Both the position numbers and the translations under genes were made by a program. The notes under the pieces are model-generated. The model was not told where the DNA came from and ran no database searches. It saw nothing but the letters and a program-made list of their open reading frames with translations. DNA of 64,000 bases from Chrysomallon squamiferum (taxonomy: Eukaryota > Mollusca > Gastropoda > Neomphalida > Peltospiridae), in the NCBI GenBank assembly GCA_012295275.1, contig CM022676.1, forward strand, positions 12,287,660-12,351,659, read 5' to 3'. This document shows positions 625 to 52,540 of the stretch, piece by piece. Position 1 is the first letter of the stretch; each line of letters opens with the position of its first letter.

Positions 625-3600
625 CTACAACAAATCAGTGATCACTAAAGTGTTGATAAACCTGAAAAAAAAAATGAAATAAAAATAAAAGGGCATGAAA
701 CAAAACAGAAGTACAAGTAATAACAATGAACAGTTACAAACAGATTTAGCCAGCAACAAAGATACATATATATATATATATAAATAAATATATATATAAA
801 CACATATATATATACATATATATATACTTATATATATATATACAACATATACAGAGAGAGAGAGAGAGAGAGAGAGAGAGAGAGAGAGAGAGAGAGAGAG
901 AGAGAGAGAGAGAGAGAGAGAGAGAGAGAGAGAGAGAGACTCCTGAACACAAATTCGAGAGTAGATAAAATAGGAAAAAAATCTCAATTAGAAGATTCCT
1001 TACATGAATATAAGATGAAACATATCTGATGATAAAGAATCACTTCCACTTATTCCTTCTAAAATACAGAAAATATAGAGAAATATAATAATCTTTAATT
1101 TATTGAAATAATAATTTTACAAAAACACAAATTCTTTCATCTATGACATTAATTATATGAATCCATAAAGTTATTAATTTATATACAGCTTATGACTCAA
1201 ACATAAACAGAAATTTCTCTTCAGTAAAATATAGGCATGTGGAAAATGCTTATTCGTTTTTATTAAGCGTATGAATATTTATACTGCAGTGGAAATAAGA
1301 TATAATTTACATAACTGAGCACTTATAAATAAATATTGTCAAAATCACAGTACAAAGTTACAATCTCTATTCACACCACACTAGAACCCAAAACAAACGT
1401 AAATTATTGTGGTCAGGATCTACTACAGCAAGTTTCGCAGCTTTATCCTAAAATGCAATTGCAAACATATCTAGATTATTAATGGATGCAAAAATAGTAA
1501 ATATTTTGCAGGTCCTAAATCTCATTGAAAAAAAAAAAAAAAAAAAGAAGCTCTATTTATGTTTTACAAAATACTGCACTTGAAAACCAAAAAAAACATC
1601 TTTCAGACTTCAGAGGTCTGCTAAAACGTGGAGTTTACAAAAACATAAATATGCCTGGAATCATGTTGAATGTCTGAATTATCAAACTGTGTGCGAAATA
1701 GCTTGAACTTGCACAGTTTAATGGTTAAGCTCATTTTGTGGGCTCTAGTTGACATGACAAAACAGCACTTCCACCAGTATAGGAAGTTGGTAATGTCATC
1801 TTTAAAAATATTGTAAAAAGCTGCCATACAACAATAAAATTACTTATTTTCCAGAAAACAAATCTAAATCAATATGACTGTCCACTTTAGTAGTGGAATA
1901 ATAATTTCAGAAACTGCTGTCTGCGTCAACGTTAAGAAGGTGTCTGCTGATCTAAGGGACATTGAAAAATAATCGGGATCCATATTAATAGCTGCACATA
2001 ATGATTCAAAGATTTGTTTATAGAACACATTCAACATTTTAAAAGAGACAACATTTCTACTGCACTTGCTATTTAACACTTAGGCAAAGGATCTGCCTGG
2101 GAGTGAAATATGCAGTTTAAATATATACATTAACATTAACCGACTGCATTTACTATATAAATAGTGTGAACATCCTTAGAAAATAAGAAATTATTTTTTT
2201 CTGTAAAACTTTATGTAAATCGTAACAGAAACTATGAAAGGCAAAACTGACCTGAAAAAGTAACATTTACTGAGCCTTTAATTGTATCAGCAACTAAATC
2301 ACTACATTGCCAAATTCCCTCATCACGTTCGGGATTTAAGCTCTGAACAGATAGTGTGTATGTTTTATTGGTGGATGCAATAACTGAATATCCTGGGATG
2401 AGTGTGTCACAGCTGCTGATATCAAATGATTTACCACACTGGACAACAACGTATAGTTCAGGACTGTTAAAGCGTAAAAGACCTCTCACTGAGCCACTTA
2501 TTATCTCACAGGTGAGGTTGAGAGGACGTTTTCTGAAAGCTTTTCCAGCTGTAAGATTCATTTGTGTTACACCTGTAACAAATAAAAAACAACTAAAATT
2601 TGTTTTATTGTTATAATAAAAACACTTTGTGCAACATTTAAACCACGGTTACTGTAGCTGTATGTACTTGTGTGTTTTTGTTAAATTTTGTAAGTGTTCC
2701 TTAACGTTCCTGATAAGTGACATTAAGCGTATGAATATTTATATTGGAGTGGAAATTAACATATAATTTACGTAACTGAGCACTTATAGATAAATATTGT
2801 CAAAATCACAGTACAAATTTACAATCTTTATTCACATCCACACACTATAACCCAAAACGAACGTAAATTATTGTGGTCAGGATCTCCTATAGCAAGTTTC
2901 GCAGCTTTATCCTAAAATGCAATTGCAAACATATCAAGTTTATTAATGGATGCAAAAATAGTAAATATTTTGCAGGTCCTAAATCTCATTAAAAAAAAAA
3001 AAAAAAAAAGCTATATTTATGTTTTACAAAATACTGCACTTGAAAACCAAATAAACCACCTTTCAGACTTCAGAGGTCTGCTAAAACGTGGAGTTTACAA
3101 AACATAAATATGCCTGGAATCATGTTGAATGTCTGAATTATCAAACTGTTTGCGAAATAGCTTGAACTCGCACAGTTTAATGGTTAAGCTCATGGTTACT
3201 GCATTTTGTGGGCTCTAGTTGACATGACAAAACAGCACTTCCACCAGTATAGGAAATTGGTAATGCCATCTTTAAAAATATTGTAAAAAGCTGCCATACA
3301 ACAATAAAATTACTTATTTTCCAGAAAACAAATCCAAATCAATATGACTGTCCACTTTAGTAGTGGAATAATAATTTCAGAAAGTGCTGTCTGCCTCAAG
3401 GTTAAGAAGGTGTCTCCTGATCTAAGGGACTTTGAAAAATAATCGGGATTCATATTAATAGCTGCACATAATGATTCAAAGATTTGTGTTAGAGAACTCG
3501 TTCAAAATTTTAAAAGAGACAACATTTCTACTGCACTTGCTATTTAACACTTAGGCAAAGGATCTGCCTGGGAGTGAAATATGCAGTTTAAAAGTATACA

Positions 3601-50768: not shown

Positions 50769-52540
50769 ATGGAATTGGAAGCGAGGCACATTTTGGTGTG
50801 TGCTGTTCTCTTTACAGCTACTTCAAGTGAGTTCATTTAAACACGAATAATAAATAGTAGTTTCAAATAATGTTTATGAATGAAAAAAAAAGTATATATA
50901 TATATATATATATATATTACATTTTTATTTTATTTTTTACAGTGAAAATGTTATGATATTTATTTTGTTTTTATACAATATTTTCATTTATAAATACAAT
51001 TTTCTAATTTAAAAAAAAACGTTACAAAAAGTCGGGGTGGTTTTTGGGGGGCCTGGAACGGATAAATGGTATTTCAGTTAATTTCAGGTGGGAAAATTGA
51101 TTTGATGTACGAGCAAACTGAGATACGAGTTTGGTCACGGAACGAATTAAACTCATAAGTCAAGGTACCACGGTATTTATTTTTGTTTTTATTAATTTTT
51201 TTTTTTTTTTTTTTTTTTTTTTTTTTACTTATATTAATGTAAGATGAGAATTTTAAGTAAATGTAATTATCACATACTTTTCAGACGCGTATTTCCTCAA
51301 AAAGTCAGGAAACGCAGTTGAGGTTGGATTATCTTTCACACTCACGTGTCACACGCGTCGCAGAGTGGCAGGGATAGGCTGGACGCGCGGGACCTTGACC
51401 ATGAATGTTCACCAAGGTCACGGGTCAAACTGCAGTGGATATCTGCCAAGAAAATACAAGTTCAAATGTAACGAGGGAACTGTATTCACACTAACAATAC
51501 CCAAAGTCTTTTTCAGCGAAGATGAAGTGAAATGGTTCTGTTCAGATCTAGATGGAAAACACAAAAGCAATGTCGTAGTTATACATGTCATGGGCGCTTG
51601 TAGGTTTTGCTCGTAAACTATAAATATAATGATAATGAGAGCCGTGTGTATGTAACGGTGTGTTTAACACATTCAGACAAATGTTCTTGCGTACAAAACA
51701 TAAAGAAATAACTAAAAGTTTCTAACGTGTGTAAAATGTACAATTCTATTACCTCTCACTTGTAGACTAATTTTTACAGAATAGTTAACTAATTTGTTTT
51801 TCTTCCTTTTTATTGTTGTTGTAGTTATTTTTATGACAATCCCATTGAGAAACTCCCAATGTAACAGAGCTGTAACTAGATAATATCCCATAATACTTTA
51901 GTTTTGTCTCGACTTTCGAACAGAATCCCAAGTTTCGACTGCCAAACGATACGTTCCAATGTTAAAAGGTCTCGTTACGTCAGCACACAAAACACAAATA
52001 CACAAAAGTATGTTTATCAATTATGAAACAGCTAACTGTAAGGAATAACCATTGATCATTTTCCTGTAATTAGCAAAAAAAATTGGTCATTAATAGATAA
52101 ACTTGAATTGAGTTTTGATATCGTGGATTTAACACTGAAAGATGTTTAAAAGATTTTCACAGTTTTCTAAATTTTGTATTGTTTAGCTATGGCGAAGAGT
52201 GGAAGCGAGTCTCTATCTTCAGCTACGTTTTGTCTGATAACCGTGTAAGTAATCTTTATTTCTAACGTTTCTTTTATTTATTTCATTGTCTCACTGCTTA
52301 GTCTATTTCTCCACCAGTTTATCTTTGTATATCTAGTTTTCACTGTTTTCTGTGTTTAACTGTACTTGAGTCGTTCAGTTCATGATCTATTACTTTTTTC
52401 TTTCTTTTTTATTATTATTATTATTATTATTATTATTATTATTATTATTATTATTATTATTATTATTATTATTATTATTATTATTATTATTTTCTTTTTT
52501 TAGATTTATCAACACTTTAGCGATCACTGGTTTGCTGTAG
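50769..52540 (+). CDS. Gene H: divergent small signal-Ig-tail protein, intact
   Basis: Exons: signal from ATG 50769 to 50826 (58 nt, phase 1; donor A|GTGAGT), Ig 51285-51599 (315 nt; donor GCTT|GTAGGT), stalk 52187-52244, tail 52504-52540 (TAG). Coding 468 nt, 155 aa. The signal peptide MELEARHILVCAVLF then TATS is unrelated in wording to the others, and the start is not preceded by the usual acceptor. The Ig domain is the most diverged: Cys in TLTC, SNCS, FKCN and WFC keep the four-Cys pattern, and it has GW in the C strand, while the F strand reads EDEVKWFC. Stalk (MAKSGSESLSSATF), tail (FINTLAITGLL) and 3' UTR stay close to the family. Same surface or GPI prediction. Confidence 0.83.
51198..51228. 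repeat. Poly-T run in intron 1 of gene H
   Basis: Homopolymer T just upstream of the Ig exon acceptor. Confidence 0.93.
52411..52492. repeat. (ATT)n microsatellite in last intron of gene H
   Basis: About 27 ATT units immediately before the tail exon, in the place where A, C, D and E carry (CT)n. Confidence 0.97.

What the first reader, a model, noticed from the sequence alone, without database searches (positions are those of the whole stretch)
625..52540. Cluster of nine paralogous miniature Ig surface-protein loci
Seen: nine loci in 52 kb with the same exon plan (signal, Ig, optional D2, stalk, tail), identical intron phases and a shared four-Cys Ig domain, in mixed orientation. Inference: an expanding, rapidly rearranging recognition or allorecognition-type gene family. 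I cannot name it from memory, and the combination (one Ig, about 15 residues of stalk, immediate C-terminal anchor) may be undescribed. Six loci (C, D, E, F1, F2, H) are intact.
Basis: partly seen in the sequence, partly recalled or inferred. Interest (0 to 1): 0.88.

Follow-up and report, generated by a model that had tools for sequence, protein, structure and literature searches.

The report
Clustered small GPI-anchored-like immunoglobulin receptor genes
This stretch of an unidentified animal's genome holds nine related copies of a short cell-surface gene, each built around one antibody-like domain held on a very short stalk, and the copies appear to be still duplicating, swapping parts and dying, as gene families for recognition at the cell surface often do.

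Summary
The window is part of a family with 99 matching stretches in its 404.6 Mb genome. D2 has 17 matches and no Pfam or significant PDB match, so the one-Ig genes most likely lost it.
Copies are young and mosaic: E-type and F-type genes alternate every 9-12 kb; one pair of loci keeps a 97% alike 5' intron beside Ig exons 85% alike; two C8 genes have one signal exon before three near-identical Ig exons.
Best reading: short, probably GPI-anchored IgV receptors under birth-and-death evolution with exon exchange. Recognition or immune function is inferred; allorecognition is untested. Organism, expression and anchor type were not established.

The parts
4353..4419 (-). A: signal exon (MALQLNWIFFFHLFIILLIFAEG)
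3724..4045 (-). A': second Ig exon behind the same signal exon, frameshifted; skipped in the model
   Evidence: two frames; 94% duplicate 1262-2723 / 2722-4196
2252..2572 (-). A: intact V-type Ig exon
1004..1058 (-). A: stalk exon
625..661 (-). A: tail exon with stop, FINTLVITDLL*
8228..10110 (+). B: 5'-truncated copy; second half of Ig 8228-8354, D2a 8480-8598, D2b 8879-9101, stalk 9441-9498, tail 10041-10110 (tail reads on into charged residues)
14836..14902 (-). C: signal exon, identical in sequence to that of G
13819..14142 (-). C: Ig exon
12941..12998 (-). C: stalk exon
12670..12706 (-). C: tail exon
20521..20587 (+). D: signal exon
21977..22300 (+). D: Ig exon
23137..23194 (+). D: stalk exon
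24010..24046 (+). D: tail exon
28631..28691 (+). E: signal exon
29430..29750 (+). E: Ig exon (the one modelled by AlphaFold, as 29429-29749)
31145..31187 (+). E: stalk exon
31437..31473 (+). E: tail exon
34544..38728 (-). F1: signal 38662-38728, Ig 36916-37242, D2a 36366-36484, D2b 35489-35705, stalk 35240-35294, tail 34544-34580
39474..39540 (+). G: signal exon
41202..41585 (+). G: broken E-like Ig exon with stops and inserted stretches; ends at the start of the F duplication (41580)
44001..48099 (-). F2: signal 48033-48099, Ig 46288-46617, D2a 45738-45856, D2b 44945-45161, stalk 44696-44750, tail 44001-44037
32099..38957 (+). segmental duplication copy 1 (96.3% to 41580-48326), carries F1
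41580..48326 (+). segmental duplication copy 2, carries F2
50769..52540 (+). H: signal 50769-50826, divergent Ig 51285-51599, stalk 52187-52244, tail 52504-52540

Best explanation
The nine loci belong to one animal gene family of short surface glycoproteins: signal peptide, one V-type Ig domain with a second conserved Cys pair in most members, in some members a second domain (D2) coded by two exons, a stalk of about ten residues and a hydrophobic C-terminus that ends at the stop codon, best read as a GPI-anchor signal. Shown: exon anatomy, V fold (predicted at high confidence), genome-wide expansion, young duplications, mosaic loci, purifying selection on the F genes. Inferred: the protein is displayed on the outer leaflet with no part inside the cell, so it would act by binding in trans or in cis through its Ig domain (copies vary most at strand C, the C-C' turn and the E-F turn) and would signal only through a partner or by shedding. 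Repeated duplication, loss and exchange of the Ig exon between copies keep the set of binding faces changing, as expected of a recognition or immune repertoire.
Against: No transcripts. No signal-peptide or GPI predictor was run. All seven full tails carry an Asn inside the hydrophobic stretch, A and E an Asp too, and B's tail (mean hydropathy 0.43) runs on into charged residues. The E exon itself has no Pfam match. dN/dS is 0.32-0.71 in the 40 pairs without A and outside C8, which is constraint; A's 11 pairs are 0.63-1.20, and of 15 C8 pairs 8 exceed 1, 4 have no synonymous change and 3 lie below 1, all on few changes. In 61 of 66 pairs the Ig exon is less diverged than its flanks (p<0.05 uncorrected; many flanks barely align), so L003/L004 is the exception that suggests exchange, not the rule. 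The variable segment is the C-C' turn, not the CDR loops. H is tied in by its ends rather than its Ig.
Confidence: 0.6

Rival explanations
1. Adhesion molecules of the nervous system (Dpr/DIP/IgLON-like): GPI-anchored Ig proteins whose many copies label cell types by homo- or heterophilic binding through the GFCC' face, with no immune role.
For: [quoted passage not shown] nectin-like 1 is among the best structural matches; copies vary around strands C-C'.
Against: Recent tandem copies, broken copies (B, G, A') and exon exchange are unlike a stable wiring code; the Dpr4 sequence match is not significant (E 0.48).
Confidence: 0.2
2. Reproductive surface proteins (gamete recognition): small, duplicated and fast-evolving.
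For: Turnover and divergence among copies fit equally.
Against: No direct evidence; constraint in F copies.
Confidence: 0.12
3. Single-pass membrane or secreted proteins rather than GPI-anchored ones.
For: The last ~18 residues could span a membrane; polar residues inside the tail; no predictor was run (sequences).
Against: The hydrophobic stretch ends at the stop codon, and none of the seven full models has Lys or Arg in its last 21 residues (sequences).
Confidence: 0.25
4. Mostly dead or assembly-made copies: unresolved haplotypes stacked in tandem give a false impression of a large family.
For: F-type copies are near identical, and E/F genes repeat at 9-12 kb spacing.
Against: F1 and F2 differ far more in introns than in exons, and family members sit on five contigs.
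Confidence: 0.06

Closest known systems
Thy-1/CD90
   Same: one V-type Ig domain plus GPI anchor, small protein
   Different: Thy-1 is recalled as a single-copy vertebrate gene; here there are many copies, an extra Cys pair and a D2 in some; no sequence link was tested
Dpr/DIP and IgLON proteins
   Same: GPI-anchored Ig surface proteins with an IgV first domain (domain plan recalled)
   Different: two or three Ig domains (recalled); here one Ig, or Ig plus an unassigned D2; no significant sequence match
Hydractinia Alr allorecognition genes
   Same: clustered Ig-superfamily surface genes with many pseudogenes (PMC11067881, passages)
   Different: Alr1 and Alr2 are single-pass transmembrane proteins; these models have no cytoplasmic tail
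Molluscan FREPs
   Same: expanded, diversified Ig-bearing families (search listing with abstract starts only)
   Different: no fibrinogen domain was found in the exons scanned; apparent membrane anchor
Ig gene clusters of the pearl oyster genome
   Same: clustered Ig genes (PF13927) with copy-number differences between haplotypes (PMC9646362, passages)
   Different: those often carry fibronectin III and a transmembrane domain
Sea urchin Sp185/333
   Same: clustered immune genes with segmental duplications and GA repeats around them (PMC5103432, abstract and outline)
   Different: no Ig domain (recalled); broken copies occur here, while that paper's outline has a heading saying there are no pseudogenes

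Membership tests
Ig superfamily, V-type fold | Ig V beta-sandwich fold | tested here: met
   (predicted structure of the E exon)
Ig superfamily, V-type fold | B-strand and F-strand Cys, D-x-G-x-W/Y-x-C before the second Cys | tested here: met
   C22, D84, W88, C90 invariant in 40 of 40 rows; G86 in at least 90%
Canonical V-set (Pfam PF07686) | Trp in strand C | tested here: not met
   Tyr (E) or Phe (A, C, D, F1) at that place; Trp in H, L043 and L048
Canonical V-set (Pfam PF07686) | score over the curated cut-off | tested here: inconclusive
   1 of 40 members matches V-set at E<=1, best 4.1e-4; cut-off not shown in that table
GPI-anchored proteins | N-terminal signal plus C-terminal hydrophobic stretch ending at the stop | tested here: inconclusive
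   tail hydropathy 1.36-2.07 in seven models, 0.43 in B; signal and omega-site not predicted by any program
GPI-anchored proteins | release by GPI-specific phospholipase C | not testable with these tools
   needs expressed protein
Alr allorecognition proteins | transmembrane helix followed by a cytoplasmic tail (tail recalled) | tested here: not met
   seven models end within the hydrophobic stretch
FREP | fibrinogen domain next to Ig | tested here: not met
   no fibrinogen family among matches of the Ig exons or D2; neighbouring ORFs were not all scanned
Thy-1 | sequence kinship | not tested
   no direct comparison run
Dpr/DIP | significant sequence kinship | tested here: inconclusive
   Dpr4 at E 0.48 with the 7-row profile

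The most novel reading that the evidence does not exclude
Ig exons act as exchangeable cassettes. A signal exon is followed by several same-phase, near-identical V exons (one signal plus three Ig exons and a D2b exon in two genes on C8; one signal plus two Ig exons, one broken, at locus A), and V exons move between loci by conversion while both end exons stay alike. The genes would be read by choosing one V exon through alternative splicing or by stringing them into multi-V receptors, giving a GPI-anchored V repertoire without somatic recombination.
Probability: 0.2. Interest if true: 0.72.

Novelty: new variant of a known kind. Interest (0 to 1): 0.5.

Why it matters
Expanded Ig families are how several invertebrates are thought to recognise non-self or kin without antibodies. 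A compact family whose members differ mainly in one V-type domain, with conserved end exons and signs of exon exchange, would let one follow how a V-domain repertoire grows. D2, a conserved domain with four Cys and no Pfam or significant PDB match, is also worth a structure.

Tried and rejected
The phylum stays open: COX1 gave no match in the assembly, and a mollusc haemocyanin search (PF14830) did not complete.

First AlphaFold model from 7 sequences: pLDDT 55.6, Foldseek best E 0.11, VIA rows included bacterial adhesins and pilins. Too weak to use; replaced by the 40-sequence model.

Single-sequence Pfam scan: no Ig family in 6 of 6 window Ig exons given (H only a chance match). Protein database searches: no relative for E alone at E<=0.1 or for the 40-row alignment at E<=0.01; I infer that this store holds few animal proteins.

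D2 as fibronectin III: one PDB hit, an entry recalled as that fold, at E 0.0085 with a single sequence, was absent with the 4-row profile, so D2 is left unassigned.

Diversifying selection: values above 1 among C8 copies rest on a handful of changes; not claimed. GA/CT repeats near the genes: listed, not tested against expectation. Whole-genome search with H: not completed.

Tree of 40 exons: 8 of 37 inner branches starred, 20 open, and H sits on a branch of 5.1, so it is used only for close pairs.

C8 genes: no D2a, stalk or tail exon was found in the held C8 stretches at E<0.5, although D2a should lie inside them; so their D2 may be incomplete or diverged.

Absence from print is not claimed. 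Searches run: (looked for the genome size).

Full report
What is there. tblastn of six window Ig exons against the window, with the ORF list, places ten Ig exons. Reading the surrounding DNA and assembling exons gives seven complete models: A 159 aa, C 161, D 161, E 153, F1 273, F2 274, H 155, from the CDS lengths without the stop. Each has a hydrophobic N-terminus read as a signal peptide, an Ig exon, a stalk exon of about 14-19 residues of which the last part is already hydrophobic, and a short tail exon ending in the stop. F1 and F2 add two exons coding D2. B lacks its signal exon and the first half of Ig. G has a signal exon and a broken Ig exon cut where the F duplication begins. Introns have phases 1, 1, 2 (or 1, 1, 0, 1, 2), so Ig and D2 are symmetrical 1-1 units that can be lost or added without breaking the frame; this follows from the phases.

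More than chance. A profile built from seven window Ig exons finds 12 segments in the six-frame translation of the window, weakest E 3.9e-7, and none at E<=10 in 20 dinucleotide-shuffled windows. Seven of the 12 match by construction; the other five are pieces of A', B and G. The shuffles show that composition alone gives nothing.

The family in the genome. The window is C12:12287660-12351659 of a 404.6 Mb assembly. The E exon has 99 matches at E<=0.001 (150 of 158 candidates scored, a lower bound by the tool's note). My count of that table: 49 on C3 (5.14-6.54 Mb), 35 on C12, 10 on C8, 4 on C13, 1 on C14. On C12, 21 rows (19 distinct places, two being split) lie in 12.265-12.605 Mb; adding B and H, which the search did not list, gives 21 Ig exons in 340 kb, of which 10 lie in the window. 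Six close relatives (69-71%) lie on C8. E-type (+) and F-type (-) genes alternate in the order E F E F, then after about 250 kb F E F E F, with spacings of 9.4-11.8 kb between successive genes of one type inside each group, so a two-gene unit has been duplicated. I did not fetch the DNA between the two groups.

D2. The D2b exon has 17 matches at E<=0.01, including the C14 member, and D2a matches L025, L035 and L037 (E 3e-7 to 4e-5), all distant in their Ig. D2 is therefore probably ancestral and lost in A, C, D, E and H; no D2 relic was found elsewhere in the window at E<0.01. Four D2 sequences share 24 invariant columns including four Cys. No Pfam match at E<=5 and no significant PDB match (best E 0.46; the single-sequence hit at 0.0085 did not persist).

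Evolution. F1 and F2 differ at 4 of 822 exon sites (one synonymous, three not, besides one extra codon in F2) and at 73 of 3260 intron sites (p 2.8e-4), so their coding sequence has been kept. NG86 dN/dS among 12 close Ig exons (66 pairs): 0.32-0.71 in the 40 pairs without A and outside C8; 0.63-1.20 in the 11 pairs with A (L004 1.15, L005 1.20); in the 15 C8 pairs 8 above 1, 4 without synonymous change, 3 below 1, all on few changes and not independent. Variation among 11 close exons is greatest at strand C, the C-C' turn and the E-F turn, not at the loops that correspond to antibody CDRs. End exons are more alike than Ig exons: in the 15 pairs of A, C, D, E, F1, H the 37-base tail exon is 0.76-0.97 identical and the Ig exon 0.37-0.80.

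Mosaics. L003 and L004 have 5' flanks 2.8% different, Ig exons 15.4%, 3' flanks 10.3% in the first 250 bases (one-sided p 5e-5, 0.003 after Bonferroni; the only one of 66 pairs in which the exon is significantly more diverged than its flanks), and further into that 3' intron they are 91-99% alike after a first stretch of 89%. Synonymous divergence of the exon is high too (dS 0.285), so replacement of the exon from another copy explains it better than selection. In 61 of the 66 pairs the exon is less diverged than its flanks (p<0.05 uncorrected), as constraint would give; many of those flanks barely align. L002 is like L003 upstream of Ig (98%; 75% to E) and like E downstream (95-100%). The signal exon of C, G and the L003 locus is identical (67 of 67) and that of L024 differs at 2 of 67. 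In a global alignment of 200-300 base flanks C is 58-77% like the others, but the local match of C and G is 90.5% over 367 bases including the exon, so for C and G the contrast is smaller than that; G and L003 are close copies throughout. The clearest contrast is C against L024 (exon 65 of 67, flanks 76% and 58%). Gene conversion or strong selection on the signal exon would both explain it.

C8 genes. Two copies each show one signal exon followed on the same strand by three Ig exons (35069175, 35068499, 35066617; and 35113015, 35112333, 35110387, positions of the first shared residue) with acceptor AG in place and a D2b exon beyond. Within each gene the three Ig exons differ by 1.6-3.3%. D2a, stalk and tail were not found in the held stretches. 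Locus A has the same start with two Ig exons, one broken. Whether these are alternative or consecutive exons needs transcripts.

How it most likely works. Shown: anatomy, predicted fold, expansion, constraint, mosaics. Inferred: display on the outer membrane leaflet by a GPI anchor; binding by the Ig domain; signalling only through partners; use in recognition. I put about 0.6 on this chain; allorecognition in particular has no support beyond resemblance to other clustered Ig families.

Novelty. The Ig fold, the likely anchor and tandem expansion are each known. The combination of conserved ends, exchanged V exons, tandem V exons behind one signal exon and an unassigned D2 is one I cannot name from memory, but I do not claim that it is absent from print: the paper library holds open-access papers only, and the protein store gave no relatives.

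Noticed in passing
24769-25365: Inverted repeats of about 75 bases (89%) enclose a frame with a DUF4817 helix-turn-helix (E 1e-6, above cut-off): a DNA transposon relic (reading inferred).
   Followed up: partly
G000:C8:35064809-35070681 and 35108582-35114521 (L006, L007, L009-L012): One signal exon followed by three near-identical Ig exons and a D2b exon, in two gene copies.
   Followed up: partly
L027 (G000:C13:21766077): Ig exon whose open frame runs on into a hydrophobic C-terminus: perhaps a relative with Ig and anchor in one exon.
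   Followed up: no
853-938, 10333-10390, 12300-12347, 16627-16692, 23256-23339, 31252-31341, 38287-38372, 47675-47746, 53515-53596: Nine GA/CT arrays of 40 bases or more, in A, D and E inside the intron between stalk and tail; reminiscent of the GA repeats around sea urchin 185/333 genes.
   Followed up: partly
62301-62838 and 63456-64000: A 0.55 kb direct repeat, 91.8% identical, not linked to the Ig genes.
   Followed up: no
551-688, 31412-31547, 52475-52617: Tail exon plus 3' flank is 83-84% alike between H and A or E although their Ig exons are 41-43% alike.
   Followed up: partly
G000:C3:5140635-6537437: 49 more distant matches in 1.4 Mb, several with six Cys among those read: a second, larger cluster.
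   Followed up: partly
42143-42223: A stalk-like stretch on the minus strand inside the second F duplication, matching 993-1074 of A at 79%: possibly a relic of a lost copy.
   Followed up: no
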